A stretch of 64,000 nt of DNA, from positions 62,001-126,000 of the forward strand of contig FWCC01000268.1 in the NCBI GenBank assembly GCA_900169235.1. Direction: 5' to 3'. The notes below the pieces were generated by a model. It did no database searches and had not been told where the DNA came from. It saw only the letters and a program-made list of their open reading frames with translations. Below are positions 4,368 through 51,083 of this stretch, piece after piece. The position numbers and the translations under genes are program-made. Position 1 is the stretch's first letter. Each line of letters opens with the position of its first letter. The stretch comes from Zarea fungicola (lineage: Eukaryota > Ascomycota > Sordariomycetes > Hypocreales > Cordycipitaceae).

Positions 4368-5007
4368 ATGGCGAGACAGGTTGAAAAAAAGATGACAGCA
4401 AGCCGGCAAAAGAGAACCATTGGATCTGTGCAAAAGCTGGATCCCATTCCCAAAGGTTTGCTCCCCTTAGACACACAACAAAAAAGTTCACGTTTCGGCA
4501 GCGGCAGCTAATATTCATGATCTAGGCACTACATTACAAAAACGGCCGCTGATCAGACAGACCATGCCAGCATCCTCCAAGGACCGTACCATCTACGTTT
4601 CCTCGACCATGCCCTTCATGTCCGCCGTGAAGCGCGTGCGCAAGCAGCTTGATCGCTGCCTCAAATCAGGCGGGAGCTCGCAGGCAGCACGCAAGAACGC
4701 GTCCCTCCATGCGCGCATTGAGAGTCTGAGGCGCGACGTGGAGAAGTCTGCGCAGAACGGTGAAAACAGCGCAAATGAGGAGTATGGTGCCGCCGTCACG
4801 CTCATGGGCACGGGGAAAGCAGTCGAGAAGACGCTTTCGGTGGCTAGCTGGTTCGAGCAAGAGCCCGACTGCCGCGTGACTGTCCGGACCAGGACGGTGG
4901 CAACGGTAGATGACTTGACGGCGGCATCAGATCAACCGGATCAACAAGATGATGAGAGTCGACTTCGTCGGTTGAGTTGCCTCGAAGTTGTCGTCAGTCT
5001 CAAGTGA
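4368..5007 (+). CDS. POP7: RNase P/MRP subunit Pop7 (Rpp20-like, Alba fold)
   Basis: Two exons, 4368-4455 and 4526-5007, encode 189 residues. The second exon alone would allow a start at 4564, but the frame stays open upstream to an acceptor, GATCTAG, at 4519-4525, adding TTLQKRPLIRQ. That joins in phase to an upstream exon ending VQKLDPIPKG, giving the PKG-TTLQKRPL segment I expect at the N-terminus of fungal Pop7. The body contains TIYVSS, PFMSAVKRVRKQLD and VTLMGTGKAVEKTLSVASWF, matching the Alba-like Rpp20 family. Pop7 pairs with Pop6 on the P3 arm of RNase P and RNase MRP RNA, which process pre-tRNA and pre-rRNA in the nucleus. The donor is GTTTGC, not a consensus site, with branch GCTAAT. 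The first 20 residues are basic. Confidence 0.78.
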
Positions 5008-30472: not shown

Positions 30473-30552
30473 GCGTGATTGGTTTAGTGGTAAAATTCTC
30501 CGTTGCCATCAGCAACGTCGGGGAGCCCTGGGTTCGATTCCCAGATCACGCA
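30473..30552 (+). tRNA. tRNA-Gly(GCC) with a 9-nt intron
   Basis: The acceptor arms GCGTGAT and ATCACGC pair fully, followed by discriminator A. The D-arm is GGTTTAGTGGTAAAAT, and the T-arm CTGGGTTCGATTCCCAG is perfect and supplies a consensus B box. The anticodon stem CTCCG/CGGGG closes on TTGCCAT after removing nine bases (TCAGCAACG, 30509-30517) placed after base 37, the standard site cut by the tRNA splicing endonuclease. The anticodon is GCC. The gene is 80 nt long, against about 71 for the mature form without CCA. T runs 4-9 bases downstream form the Pol III terminator. Confidence 0.93.
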
Positions 30553-36982: not shown

Positions 36983-39900
36983 ATGGCCTCACGACTGGCT
37001 GTTGTCCGGGGCGCTTCCCTCAAGCACTCCTCCTTCTCTCTGGCCGCCAGATCTGTGCCCCTCGTTGCCCGCCGTGGTGTCGCTTCCGCCACCAGCGCCC
37101 GCCAGCTCTCACAGACCACACAGACTGAGGCCGATGGCCACAGGAGATCCCATGCCGCCCTGGAGTCGCTCCAGCGCGATCCTGCCTTTCTTCAGATGAA
37201 GGATGCCCTGGCTGAGAACCCCCAGCCATGGATGGACTTCGTCGCCCGCCACATTGGTCCCCGCGACTCCGACATTGACGCCATGCTCAAGACCGTTGGT
37301 GCCGACTCTCTCGACACCTTCATCTCTCAGGTCATTCCCAAGGATATTCTCCTGCCTCCCAAGAAGACCATTCAGGCCAACAAGCTCAGCGAGTCTGGTG
37401 TGGCCAACGTCTTCAAGAACATGAGCGCACAAAACGAGATCAAGACATGGATGAACGGTGGTGGTTACTACCCCGTCGAGATTCCCGCCGTCATCAAGCG
37501 CAACATTCTCGAGAACCCTGCCTGGTACACCAGCTACACTCCTTACCAGGCTGAAATTAGCCAAGGCCGTCTCGAGTCTCTCCTCAACTTCCAGACCATG
37601 ATCTGCGACTTGACGGGTCTTCCCGTCGCCAATGCCTCGCTTCTCGACGAGGGTACCGCTGCCGCCGAGGCCATGACCATGTCCTGGAACTCTCTTCCCG
37701 CTACTCGCGCCAAGCGTCCCAACAAGACCTATGTCGTCTCACACCTTCTCCACGATGCCACCATTCGCGTCATGCACGGCCGTGCCGAGGGATTCGGAAT
37801 CAAGATCGAGGTTGTCGACCTCTCCGCGCCCGACGCCAAGGACAAGATCAAGGCTCTCGGTGACGACCTCGTCGGTGTCATGGTGCAATATCCGGATACC
37901 AACGGTGGTATTCAGAACTTCAGAGAGCTCGCCGATCTCGCCCACGCCCAGGGCACTCTTCTCAGCGCTGCTACTGACCTGTCTTCTCTGACTCTCCTCA
38001 CACCCCCGGGTGAATGGGGCGCCGATGTTGCTTTTGGTAACTCTCAGCGCTGGGGTGTTCCTCTTGGATTTGGCGGTCCCCACGCCGCCTTCATGGCTGC
38101 CCAGGAGTCTAGCAAGCGCCGTCTGCCCGGCCGTATTATTGGCGTCTCCAAGGACCGCACTGGCCGCCGTGCCCTGCGTCTCGCTCTCCAGACTCGTGAG
38201 CAGCACATTCGACGTGAGAAAGCTACCTCCAACGTCTGCACTGCCCAGGCCCTGCTTGCCAACATGGCTGCCATGTATGCCATTTACCACGGCCCTGGCC
38301 AGCTCCGTGAAATGGCCGTCACCAACCTACGCCACGCCCGCATGATCCAGGCCGCTGCTCAGCATTACGGCCTCAACGTCATCACTTCTTCTGTCGACCC
38401 CGAGGGCCGTGTCCTATCTGATACCGTCACAATCGGCTTCAAAGACCCTATTGTATGCCGTGCTCTCCGTCGAGAGCTCAATGGCCGCGGCATCAGCAGC
38501 GGCAAGTCCTGGTCCTCTAGCGAGATTGTCCTAGCCGTCCCTACTACCTTCACCCTCAAGAACTACATCCGCATCGTGCAGTCTTTCCGTGACGTCTCCT
38601 TCAAGAACCACACCAATGCCTACGTCGACGTTGCCAACAAGTACTGGACCGAGGGTTACAAGGTTTCCTCCGAGGAGATCATCAAGAGCCTTCCCGCCGC
38701 GGTCCGCCGAGAGTCCAAGTTCTTGACTCACCCCGTCTTCAACTCTCATCACAGTGAGACTGAGATGCTCCGCTACATGCATCACCTGCAGTCCAAGGAT
38801 CTGTCCCTGGTTCACTCCATGATTCCTCTTGGCTCTTGCACCATGAAGCTCAACGGTACTACCCAGATGGAGCTAATTGGCACCGAGTCATCTTCCAACA
38901 TCCACCCCCACGCCCCTCTAAGCGGTGTCAAGGGCTACGAGAAGCTCTTTGCTGCCACCGCTGCTCAGCTCTCCGCCCTTACCGGCATGGATGCCACTTC
39001 CCTGCAGCCCAACTCTGGTGCCCAGGGTGAGTTTGCTGGTCTTCGTGCCATCGCAAAGTACCACGAACAAAACGGTGGAGCCAAGCGCGACATCTGCCTG
39101 ATCCCTACCTCCGCTCATGGTACCAACCCTGCATCTGCTGCTATGGCCGGCATGCGCGTTGTCCCCGTCAAGTGCGATACTGCCACTGGTAACCTCGATA
39201 TTGCTGATCTCACGGCCAAGGCCAAGAAGCACGAGAAGGAGCTTGCTGCCATCATGGTCACCTACCCTTCTACCTATGGTGTCTTTGAGCCTGAGGTTCG
39301 CAAGGCTTGTGACATTGTTCACGAGCATGGTGGTCTTGTCTACATGGATGGCGCAAACATGAATGCCCAGATTGGCCTCACCTCTCCTGGTGCCCTCGGC
39401 GCTGATGTCTGCCATCTGAACCTCCACAAGACTTTCTGCATTCCCCACGGTGGGGGTGGTCCTGGTATCGGCCCCATCTGCGTCAAGGATATCCTTGAGC
39501 CCTTCTTGCCTCACCAGAACAACCAGACGCCTGTGTCTAGCGCCACCTTTGGCAGCGCCAGCATCGTACCTATCAGCTGGGCTTACATATCCACCATGGG
39601 TGATGCCGGCCTCCGCAAGGCTACCTCGTTGGCTCTGCTCAACGCTAACTACATTCTTGCCCGTCTCAAGGATCACTACCCCATTCTCTACACCAATGAG
39701 AATGGTCGCTGCGCTCACGAGTTCATTATTGATGCCCGAGGCTTCTCCAAGACTGCAGGTGTCGAAGCCATTGACATTGCTAAGCGTCTTCAGGACTATG
39801 GCTTCCATGCCCCTACGATGAGCTGGCCTGTACCGAACACTCTCATGATCGAACCTACAGAATCTGAGAGCAAGGAGGAGCTTGACCGCTTCATCAATGC

Positions 39901-40239
39901 ACTTATTAGCATCCGACAGGAGATCCGTGAAGTTGAAGAGGGCAAGCAGCCCCGCGAGGGCAACGTTCTTAAGAACTCTCCCCACACCCAGCTGGATCTT
40001 CTCCTTGGCGACGATGGCAAGTGGGAACGTCCCTACAGCCGTGAGAAGGCTGCATACCCCCTGCCTTATCTCACCGAGAAGAAGTTTTGGCCGACCGTTA
40101 CCCGTGTTGATGACAGTAAGTTTTACCGATACAAAATTTAAATTAAGCAAACAACTAACGCAATTTTACAGAGTACGGCGACACAAACCTGTTCTGTACC
40201 TGCCCTCCCGTTGAGGACACTACTGGCGATGCCAACTAA
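36983..40239 (+). CDS. GCV2: Glycine decarboxylase P protein (glycine dehydrogenase, decarboxylating), mitochondrial
   Basis: Two exons, 36983-40115 and 40172-40239, encode 1066 residues; the donor is GTAAGT and the acceptor TACAG, with CTAAC 15 bases before it. The P protein of the glycine cleavage system decarboxylates glycine with pyridoxal phosphate and passes the aminomethyl group to lipoylated H protein in the mitochondrial matrix. Residues 1-45 are Arg/Ser/Ala-rich without acidic residues, a typical presequence. The two homologous halves of the family are both present: the N-terminal half starts around MDFVARHIGPRDSDIDAML, and the C-terminal half contains HGTNPASAAMAG and the PLP site NLHKTFCIPHGGGGPG, where Lys816 should bind the cofactor. 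Length fits the family (about 1000). Codon use is strongly biased to C-ending codons, suggesting high expression. Confidence 0.98.
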
Positions 40240-49350: not shown

Positions 49351-49480
49351 AGCAACATAGCTCAGTGGAAGAGGTGAATAAACTCACAAACCCCACAATC
49401 AATGAGTCAACTTGAGTACTAACGGATATCAGCGGCGGGCTCATAACCCGCAGGTCCCTGGATCGAGACTAGGTGTTGCT
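49351..49480 (+). tRNA. Initiator tRNA-Met(CAT) split in the D-stem by an mRNA-type intron
   Basis: Exons 49351-49373 and 49433-49480. The acceptor stem AGCAACA/TGTTGCT pairs fully and A73 follows. After removing 49374-49432 the D-stem GCTC/GAGC is perfect. The anticodon arm is GCGGG-CTCATAA-CCCGC and the T-arm CCTGG-ATCGAGA-CTAGG. Four marks identify an initiator: A1:U72, three G:C pairs beside the loop, A54 and A60; the anticodon loop CTCATAA equals that of yeast initiator tRNA. The A box (TAGCTCAGTGG) and a slightly degenerate B box (GGATCGAGACT) are present, with seven T shortly downstream. Cloverleaf and terminator argue for a working gene, provided the insert is removed. It could also be an inactivated copy. 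Confidence 0.82.
49374..49432 (+). other. 59-nt spliceosomal-type intron inside the initiator tRNA gene
   Basis: The insert begins GTGAATAA, has a perfect TACTAAC at 49417-49423 and ends ATATCAG, with ten bases from the branch A to the end. Its size and signals match the protein-gene introns in this window. It lies between tRNA bases 24 and 25, not at 37/38 where tRNA endonuclease cuts. The donor is weaker than consensus (A at +5). The boundaries could shift by up to two bases (AG on both sides) with the same product. Confidence 0.7.
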
Positions 49481-51083
49481 ACACAGTCTACTTTTTTTGC
49501 CAAAATTTCCCGACCTTTTTTGTGTGCGAAGGCAATCTTGTTGTCGTCGGTTCTAGGTTAGGTGACGAGAAGTGGGCGATGGGGCCTTTGGAGCCATCAG
49601 AGTGGGTGAGCTTGGCCAGGCGATATGTGTAGTAATAAATGAGAATGATTGATTCAACATGTCAGATTAAAGACTTTATCAGGCACAAATAAATAGCAAT
49701 ATTCCTCTTCTTCCCTTTTTCTTATGTAAAAACAAGAGCCTCACATTGAGGTTTTCTGAAAAAAAAAAAAAAGAGAACCAGTAATAATACAGCCCTGGAC
49801 CATCGGGATACTGGTGGTAATGACGAAATGCCAAGTACGGATGTCGGTGGGCTTAAGCAGTTTAGCTTGGTTGAGAGAGAGACATGGTTGCACCGCTGCG
49901 TACGCGAAGTTGCAACTTTGCGAGACGGTGGCAGTTACCAGCATGTCCTTGGCAGGCACGCGTGGCCTTGCCTGAAGGGGAAGACGAGGGGCAAATAAGC
50001 CAGACAAGGACCAGGGTTGATTGAGGGGGGGAAAAAACCAAAAAAACCCGGCCAAACCATTGCCCACTGTCCACACATGACATACGAGAGACGATGCAAG
50101 ATTGCGGCTATGGCCAGTAAGGCTGCACGGGACGTGGTGTGGGCTGATGGTGAAAATGAGTGAGCGCCACTGGCGCCGCGATGGACGACTACCTAGCCTG
50201 GCAGGTTTTAGGCGGCTGGGGAGGCTAGCGAAGATTGCAGGTATTGAGCTGCTCTTATTAGTTGGGTTATGTGGCTGGCTATCCGTGGCCTTGCCAAAGA
50301 CAATTGTCGTGCTGTCCACCCGGATGTGTGAATATGAGGTACTGCCGTACTGGTGCATGACTGCAGGTGGCGTGTGCGCCGCCTCTTATGTTGGGCACAG
50401 TATCAACCATTTTACTTCGTAACGTACCAATAACAGAACTACTCTGCTACTGTGGCTAACTAGCGTATGGTTCAATTTAACTGCCCTGGTGACCAGTTCC
50501 CAGGCTTCACAAGGCATGCTGCAGCACCCAGACAAAAGTAGTGCTTTGCCCATGTTGCGATATCAATGGAGGGAGCATGCCCTATCACCACGAGAAATGC
50601 CCCCGACGTCACATGTACTGCCAACACTGGTAGCCAAAACCACCACCACCTTGAGCAATAATAAAGACAAATAATAAAACAAATAAAAGCCAGTGAACCT
50701 GGAGCCTCTTCTGCCCCACGCTTTCCGTCATCAAACCGCCCATCGCCAGCTGATAGCGTTCTTCATTCCCACTTTCCCTCCCACTTCCCTCCCCCTTGTC
50801 GCCCACCAAGCCTACAAACTTCAGCCCAGGCCAGACCACCACAATCCACTACCTACTAAGGTACACAACCAGGGGACCCCTCCAACCGTCCCAAGCCCAC
50901 TCCCGCCCATTCATCCTCCTGTCGCGTGCATCCTCTCCAGCTCATACCGTTTTCCCGGTCTTGTATTTGCTGCAAGCAGACTGCGAAATAGTGCGGCTAC
51001 AGATTACTCCCTCTCTCCTCATTATACTTTTGCGTATCAAAACAAAACCTTGCTTGGTTCTGTTGGCTTGTAACTTCCCACCA
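49481..51083. other. Intergenic region between initiator tRNA and choline kinase genes
   Basis: No protein gene supported. A 205-codon minus-strand frame (49741-50358) has no recognisable domain. From about 50690 to 51080 the plus strand is rich in C and T and is the likely promoter and leader of the choline kinase gene. Confidence 0.5.
49492..49498 (+). terminator. Pol III terminator of the split initiator tRNA
   Basis: Seven T on the plus strand, starting 12 bases after the tRNA end. Confidence 0.8.

What the first reader, a model, noticed from the sequence alone, without database searches (positions are those of the whole stretch)
49351..49480. Initiator tRNA-Met gene interrupted by a spliceosomal-looking intron in the D-stem
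The sequence shows an otherwise complete initiator tRNA (A1:U72, GGG:CCC beside a CTCATAA loop, A54, A60) split between bases 24 and 25 by 59 nt with GT at the start, a perfect TACTAAC and CAG at the end. Removal restores the GCTC/GAGC stem to the base. Nuclear tRNA introns normally sit at 37/38 and are cut by a protein endonuclease. mRNA-type introns in a Pol III transcript are known from U6 snRNA genes of some fungi; I know of no such case for a fungal initiator tRNA. If functional, translation initiation would depend on the spliceosome through this gene.
Basis: partly seen in the sequence, partly recalled or inferred. Interest (0 to 1): 0.92.

Follow-up and report, generated by a model that had tools for sequence, protein, structure and literature searches.

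The report
Spliceosomal introns inside fungal tRNA genes
In a fungal genome close to Beauveria, genes for the tRNA that starts every protein, and for two other tRNAs, are interrupted by introns of the kind found in messenger RNA, which suggests that the mRNA-splicing machine also helps make tRNAs, a job thought to belong to a separate enzyme.

Summary
Confirmed (gene 49351-49481, intron 49374-49432), and not isolated. Three of the five initiator-tRNA genes found in this genome carry GT-AG inserts at 24|25; two of them carry a second at 46|47. A tRNA-Leu(UAA) gene is split at 34|35 and a tRNA-Thr(CGU) gene at 35|36. All seven inserts are 55-69 nt, begin GT, end YAG and hold CTAAC ending 9-11 nt before the intron end; the U6 gene found has one too. 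Spliced in silico, two initiator genes and the Thr gene each equal an intronless paralog in 72 of 72 bases. The window gene differs from those initiators by 16 bases; 14 form seven two-sided stem changes and all 21 pairs hold, so it is not a decayed copy. Sixteen ordinary tRNA introns show no GT-AG and no CTAAC. Most likely Pol III makes the precursor and the spliceosome removes these introns; in Leu(UAA) it must act before the tRNA endonuclease. Removal is inferred: no RNA data or relative's genome was available. Two intronless initiator genes mean initiation need not depend wholly on the spliceosome. Ten literature searches listed no such report.

The parts
49351..49373 (+). initiator tRNA exon 1 (bases 1-24): 5' acceptor strand and D arm up to G24; A-box-like TAGCTCAGTGG at 49358-49368
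   Evidence: A box recognised by eye from the recalled consensus
49374..49432 (+). spliceosomal-type intron, 59 nt, between tRNA bases 24 and 25
49374..49379 (+). 5' splice site GTGAAT (A at +5, as in the same intron of C181 and C435)
49417..49423 (+). branch-site motif TACTAAC, ending 9 nt before the intron end
49430..49432 (+). 3' splice site CAG
49433..49481 (+). initiator tRNA exon 2 (bases 25-73), anticodon CAT at 49442-49444
49460..49470 (+). B-box-like GGATCGAGACT in the T arm (A54, initiator type)
   Evidence: B box recognised from the recalled consensus
49492..49498 (+). T7 run starting 11 bases after the gene's last base, likely Pol III terminator
   Evidence: inference

Best explanation
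The window holds a functional initiator tRNA gene with an ordinary U2-type mRNA intron in its D stem. It belongs to a set of nuclear tRNA genes of this fungus (at least 3 initiator genes, 1 Leu-UAA, 1 Thr-CGU) whose precursors are made by Pol III (A- and B-box-like sequences kept, T runs downstream) and whose introns are removed by the spliceosome, as happens to U6 RNA. In Leu(UAA) the 58-nt intron splits the anticodon and parts it from the ordinary 17-nt tRNA intron, so the spliceosome must act before the tRNA endonuclease. Shown: anatomy, exactness against intronless paralogs, conserved signals and base pairing. Inferred: transcription by Pol III, actual removal, and order of steps.
For: Seven tRNA introns in five genes: 7 of 7 begin GT, end YAG and hold CTAAC ending 9-11 nt before the intron end; lengths 55-69 nt. 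C181 and C435: spliced exons 72/72 identical to intronless C113, while between them intron 1 is 38/59 identical (best of 300 shuffles 0.57) and intron 2 51/60, with flanks at the shuffled level. Thr C172 spliced is 72/72 identical to intronless C170. Window gene vs C181: 16 differences, 14 in stems, all as 7 two-sided changes, 21 of 21 pairs kept; 2 of 20,000 random sets of 16 substitutions did so. The Leu gene becomes tRNA-Leu(taa) with a canonical 17-nt intron only after removal of the GT-AG stretch; unspliced it is read as Thr(tgt), which does not fit its long variable arm and A73. U6 of the same genome (C377) has a 59-nt GTAAGT...CACTAAC...CAG intron, and the Rfam alignment departs from the U6 consensus at that point. 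Of 18 mRNA introns read from Ras-family genes, 9 have CTAAC and 16 CTRAY in the last 45 nt. Of 16 ordinary tRNA introns, 0 are GT-AG and 0 hold CTAAC (borders approximate where ARAGORN misnames the tRNA).
Against: No RNA evidence. Donors of intron 1 have A at +5 in 3 of 3 genes, off the GTAAGT consensus. The Leu intron contains T5, a possible Pol III terminator. Intronless initiator and Thr genes exist, so those intron-bearing copies could be dispensable. No relative could be examined. The pattern that led to C172 gave no more places (28) than its reversed control (32). The tRNA survey is incomplete: 63 of 1250 candidates scored, whose list lacks even C172 (53.3 bits) and the window's tRNA at 30473 (51.2 bits).
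Confidence: 0.85

Rival explanations
1. The intron-bearing copies are pseudogenes: mRNA-like inserts landed in spare tRNA genes and only the intronless genes (C113, C175, C170) work.
For: Intronless copies exist for initiator Met and Thr(CGU). Short D/T-arm insertions in eukaryotic tRNA genes are usually taken to mark pseudogenes (Yoshihisa 2014, PMC4090602, passages).
Against: Exons of C181 and C435 are unmutated (72/72) although their introns have diverged to 64% and 85%; window exons show 7 two-sided pair changes and no broken pair; splice and branch signals are kept in 7 of 7 introns; no intronless Leu(UAA) gene was found (pattern-limited). Gene conversion could keep exons alike but would not keep intron signals while the rest diverges (inference).
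Confidence: 0.09
2. The inserts are removed by the tRNA splicing endonuclease (Sen) as non-canonical tRNA introns, as in Cyanidioschyzon or nucleomorphs.
For: Non-canonical tRNA introns outside the spliceosome are known in archaea, a red alga and nucleomorphs.
Against: 7 of 7 have GT, CTAAC and YAG, which that enzyme is not known to use; 16 ordinary tRNA introns of this genome have none. The D-arm intron disrupts the arm that Sen54 is reported to contact. No bulge-helix-bulge was evident in single-strand folds (inspected by eye, not scored).
Confidence: 0.03
3. The introns are a mobile introner-like family spreading through the genome, and tRNA genes are chance targets.
For: mRNA-type introns at differing positions in unrelated tRNAs suggest repeated gain.
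Against: Whole-genome search with the C181 intron 2 finds only itself and the C435 copy (2 places); with the window intron only itself (1 place). Two of seven introns were queried, and this search is known to miss weak matches (one search missed the C181 and C435 exons). This rival concerns origin and is compatible with splicing.
Confidence: 0.05
4. These loci are transcribed by Pol II (or both polymerases), and the spliced product is a by-product rather than a mature tRNA.
For: Spliceosomal introns are usually in Pol II transcripts (recalled); the Leu intron holds T5.
Against: A- and B-box-like sequences and nearby T runs are kept; U6, also intron-bearing here, is a Pol III gene elsewhere (recalled); exon pairing is conserved to tRNA standards.
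Confidence: 0.06

Closest known systems
mRNA-type introns in fungal U6 snRNA genes (Tani and Ohshima 1989 and Canzler et al. 2016, seen only as reference-list entries; Canzler not held)
   Same: Small structured RNA, Pol III gene, GT-AG intron with a strong branch site; present in this genome's U6 too
   Different: Host gene is a tRNA; up to two introns per gene; introns break D stem, variable loop or anticodon
Spliceosomal introns of fungal U3 snoRNA genes (PMC5832005, passages)
   Same: Short spliceosomal introns in a small structured non-coding RNA, paralogs differing in intron presence
   Different: Not a tRNA. That 2017 paper says that U3 and U6 are so far the only small structured RNAs known to be often interrupted by an intron
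Canonical eukaryotic tRNA introns (position 37/38, Sen endonuclease and ligase)
   Same: Interrupt nuclear tRNA genes; this genome has many
   Different: Position, length, GT-AG ends and branch site all differ
Non-canonical (ectopic) tRNA introns of Cyanidioschyzon, nucleomorphs and archaea (PMC4090602 and PMC3978253, passages)
   Same: Introns in D arm, variable region or elsewhere, sometimes several per gene
   Different: Described as bulge-helix-bulge or very short introns; spliceosomal signals are not mentioned in the passages seen

Membership tests
Eukaryotic initiator tRNA-Met | A1:U72, A54, A60, GGG:CCC next to CTCATAA, anticodon CAT | tested here: met
   Read from the sequence and ARAGORN Met(cat) on the joined exons; feature list partly recalled. 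Elongator Met genes, recognised by eye, are separate loci (L366, L367) with G1 and T54
U2-type spliceosomal intron | GT...AG ends with branch site near the 3' end, as in mRNA introns of the same genome | tested here: met
   7 of 7 tRNA introns and the U6 intron; compared with 18 Ras-family mRNA introns
U2-type spliceosomal intron | Precise excision by the spliceosome, lariat product | not testable with these tools
   No RNA data. Precision agrees with intronless paralogs (72/72 for Met and for Thr)
mRNA-type introns of Pol III genes (U6/U3 class) | Host gene transcribed by Pol III | tested here: inconclusive
   A/B-box-like sequences and downstream T runs present by eye; transcription not shown; Leu intron has T5
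Canonical tRNA intron (Sen) | Insertion at 37/38 with anticodon-intron pairing | tested here: not met
   Positions are 24|25, 46|47, 34|35 and 35|36
Bulge-helix-bulge ectopic tRNA intron | BHB motif at the exon-intron junctions | tested here: inconclusive
   Minimum-energy folds looked at for window, C181, C435, Leu and Thr precursors; none evident, but no BHB model was run
Introner-like element | Many near-identical copies across the genome | tested here: not met
   Only self and paralog matches; two of the seven introns queried, by a search that misses weak matches
tRNA pseudogene | Decayed stems or exons | tested here: not met
   21 of 21 pairs kept in the window gene, C181, C435, C113 and C175

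The most novel reading that the evidence does not exclude
In this fungal lineage the spliceosome is a regular tRNA-maturation machine. Several isoacceptors pass through it, UUA decoding may depend on it entirely because the only Leu(UAA) gene found needs the spliceosome first and the tRNA endonuclease second, and gain and loss of mRNA introns in tRNA genes is ongoing, with intronless copies such as C113 and C170 perhaps arising from spliced RNA.
Probability: 0.5. Interest if true: 0.95.

Novelty: new variant of a known kind. Interest (0 to 1): 0.9.

Why it matters
tRNA splicing and mRNA splicing are taught as separate systems; [quoted passage not shown] Spliceosomal introns in nuclear tRNA genes would join the two and could couple start-tRNA or Leu(UAA) supply to spliceosome activity. 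They would also explain tRNA genes missed by gene finders: ARAGORN and Rfam miss the three intron-bearing initiator genes. The exact intronless paralogs in the same genome give a testable setting for intron gain and loss.

Tried and rejected
Related genomes: none reachable; the genome collection says it holds no relatives of this one.

DNA search with the 72-nt initiator sequence found only the intronless copy, so absence in that tool is weak evidence. Anticodon-arm pattern: 13 places, reversed control 19; five are the initiator genes; of the other eight, all with 3 mismatches, four were shown and were not tRNA-like and four lack a CATAA loop in the matched letters. D-arm pattern: 263 places, control 149, only the first 100 listed; 12 are exact, 4 of them initiator genes; the other 8 exact places and 2 one-mismatch places were inspected and were not tRNAs; C175 is among the listed one-mismatch places and the rest were not inspected. 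T-arm pattern: 68 places, control 66; 5 exact (4 initiator genes and C416) and 63 with one mismatch, C175 among them; C416 and seven one-mismatch places were fetched and were not tRNAs; 55 were not inspected. So five initiator genes is a lower bound. A pattern for elongator Met missed it because its A box differs; it was recognised later as L366/L367, which ARAGORN misnames. C119, a near match, was fetched and is not a tRNA by eye.

Pattern branch site + AG + B box: 28 places against 32 for the reversed control, no excess. Six were fetched, of which only C172 was a tRNA; C98 was already known; the rest were judged from matched letters alone, and three of them (C169, C362, C387) look like ordinary Leu tRNAs. 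Four identical places (L382 type: C318, C341, twice C357) remain unexplained.

The automatic choice of mRNA introns was partly wrong, so I re-read exon frames and used 18 introns delimited by hand. Left out: C431 and C278, whose in-frame gaps look like coding insertions; the first C425 junction, which looks GC-AG; the C89 gap and the last C414 gap, never tried. The ordinary tRNA introns are 15 that ARAGORN cut from 15 fetched loci plus the Leu one; L362, L365, L378 and L355, of types already included, were not added.

Considered and rejected: sequencing or assembly artefact (five loci on five contigs with consistent signals); mitochondrial gene (C218 is the likely mitochondrial contig).

Full report
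What was checked. The stretch 49351-49481 was read. Exon 1 is 49351-49373, the insert 49374-49432, exon 2 49433-49481. Joined, the exons make a 72-nt tRNA that ARAGORN calls Met(cat); unjoined, nothing is called, and Rfam finds no tRNA there. The gene is followed by a T7 run and carries A- and B-box-like sequences (recognised from recalled consensus).

Where it lies. The window is G000:C362:62001-126000 of a 43.1-Mb, 456-contig genome. The glycine dehydrogenase at 36983-40141 is 94% identical over its length to a Beauveria bassiana record; the next named full-length hit is Lecanicillium at 80% (120 of 8000 scored hits listed). I take the organism to be a hypocrealean fungus near Beauveria (inference from one protein).

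The gene family. Three patterns, covering the D arm, the anticodon arm and the T arm with 3' acceptor, each list the same five initiator-type genes: window C362; C181:30097-30283:+; C435:3664-3850:-; C113:21764-21835:-; C175:34767-34840:- (ends worked out). Many one-mismatch places were not inspected, so five is a lower bound. C181 and C435 have two inserts each: 55 and 56 nt at 24|25, the same place as in the window gene, and 60 and 59 nt at 46|47. C113 is intronless and equals the spliced C181 and C435 in 72 of 72 bases. C175 is an intronless variant of the window type, 74 nt; its two extra bases can be aligned as an AG at the window gene's intron site, a possible scar of imprecise intron loss, but the Rfam alignment puts them in the D loop. 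Elongator Met is a different gene (L366, L367, recognised by eye) with an ordinary intron.

Selection. Between C181 and C435 the exons are identical, intron 1 is 38/59 identical (mean of 300 shuffles 0.48, best 0.57) and intron 2 51/60. The window intron is 37/63 and 41/61 identical to the C181 and C435 intron 1, little above the best shuffles (0.56, 0.60). The 100-nt flanks of the five genes are 0.45-0.57 identical in the ten pairs, near the shuffled level, apart from a shared ATCAA just before C181, C435 and C113. Splice ends and branch sites are kept. Between the window gene and C181, 16 of 72 bases differ; 14 lie in stems as seven two-sided changes, none one-sided, and all 21 pairs hold; 2 of 20,000 random sets of 16 substitutions did so. 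One changed pair is in the D stem and two acceptor pairs join exon 1 to exon 2 across the intron. This is hard to square with a dead copy.

More tRNAs. Of 63 scored Rfam hits, 49 lie outside the likely mitochondrial contig and were fetched. One, C98:27449-27604:-, is a long-variable-arm tRNA that ARAGORN reads as Thr with a 75-nt intron. The GT-AG intron lies inside the anticodon (34|35). A search for branch site, AG and B box (28 places, reversed control 32, no excess in number) led to C172:235090-235230:-, a tRNA-Thr(CGU) with a 69-nt GTAAGT...AGCTAAC...CAG intron at 35|36, whose exons equal the intronless C170:211739-211810:- gene in 72 of 72 bases. A pattern for further Leu(UAA) genes gave five places, C98 among them and none of the others a Leu(UAA) by its letters; genes with a different D arm would be missed.

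U6. The one U6 match (C377; 47 of 2762 candidates scored) has a 59-nt intron at 4508-4566, GTAAGT...CACTAAC...CAG, with a B-box-like stretch inside it; the Rfam alignment loses the U6 consensus at that point. So this genome already has one Pol III-type gene with a spliceosomal intron, of a kind known in fungi (references seen; U6 as a Pol III gene is recalled).

Signals. The seven tRNA introns begin GT and end YAG, with CTAAC ending 9-11 nt before the intron end. Of 18 Ras-gene mRNA introns, 9 have CTAAC and 16 CTRAY in the last 45 nt, with lengths 54-241 (delimited by hand). Of 16 ordinary tRNA introns, none is GT-AG or holds CTAAC; their borders are approximate where ARAGORN misnames the tRNA. 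GT-AG with TACTAAC in the zone occurs in 27 of 1,137,874 placements, real introns included. Runs of four or more T occur in 1 of 8 non-coding-RNA introns (Leu, T5) and in 6 of 18 mRNA introns; the numbers are too small for a claim. The +5 base of intron 1 is A in 3 of 3 initiator genes.

Mechanism. Most likely Pol III transcribes the gene, the spliceosome removes the intron(s), and the usual end-processing follows. For Leu(UAA) the anticodon can pair with the canonical intron only after the 58-nt intron is gone, so order is forced (inference). For initiation, C113 can supply the same tRNA as C181 and C435 without splicing, so dependence is partial.

Literature. Ten searches of the held library listed no paper on spliceosomal introns in nuclear tRNA genes; subscription papers are mostly not held, and three searches found more papers than they listed (52, 245 and 1,651 found; others listed). 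Passages seen: PMC4090602 treats D/T-arm insertions in eukaryotic tRNA genes as mostly pseudogenes and has no word beginning 'spliceosom'; PMC8450103 describes non-canonical intron detection for archaea; PMC5832005 names U3 and U6 as the only small structured RNAs known to be often interrupted; [quoted passage not shown] The passages shown of PMC13130702, PMC5499181, PMC9518982, PMC4035089 and PMC3978253 held nothing contrary. Canzler 2016 was not held.

Limits. No RNA data, no relatives, an incomplete tRNA survey (one search scored 63 of 1250 candidates and its list lacks C172 and the window's own tRNA at 30473), and pattern searches that presuppose CTAAC and a strict B box. The number of tRNA genes with such introns may be higher than five.

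Noticed in passing
L322 (C377:4441 onward, intron 4508-4566): The only U6 match found has a 59-nt spliceosomal-type intron that contains a B-box-like sequence.
   Followed up: partly
L379 (C98:27449-27604:-): tRNA-Leu(UAA) gene with both a GT-AG intron at 34|35 and a canonical 17-nt intron; the only Leu(UAA) gene found by pattern.
   Followed up: yes
L381 (C172:235090-235230:-) and L334 (C170:211739-211810:-): tRNA-Thr(CGU) pair identical in exons, one with a 69-nt GT-AG intron inside the anticodon and one without.
   Followed up: yes
L011 (C175:34767-34840:-): Intronless initiator-like variant with two extra bases that can be aligned as AG exactly where the window gene has its intron; possibly a scar of imprecise intron loss.
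   Followed up: partly
L382 and three further identical places (C318, C341, C357 twice): Repeated stretch with CTAAC, AG and two T-arm-like sequences; ARAGORN calls no tRNA in the one fetched.
   Followed up: no
window 30473-30552: tRNA that ARAGORN names Asp(atc) looks by eye like Gly(GCC) with a short canonical intron.
   Followed up: no
L009, just after the C113 tRNA: Two undetermined bases (NN) directly after the intronless initiator gene, followed by a long T run; the spot where a retrocopied CCA tail would show cannot be read.
   Followed up: no
C181, C435 and window, intron 1: All three have A instead of G at donor +5 (GTAAAT, GTAAAT, GTGAAT), a shared departure from the GTAAGT consensus.
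   Followed up: no
L318 (C425, first Ras-gene intron): Apparent GC-AG mRNA intron with GGCTAAC branch site.
   Followed up: no
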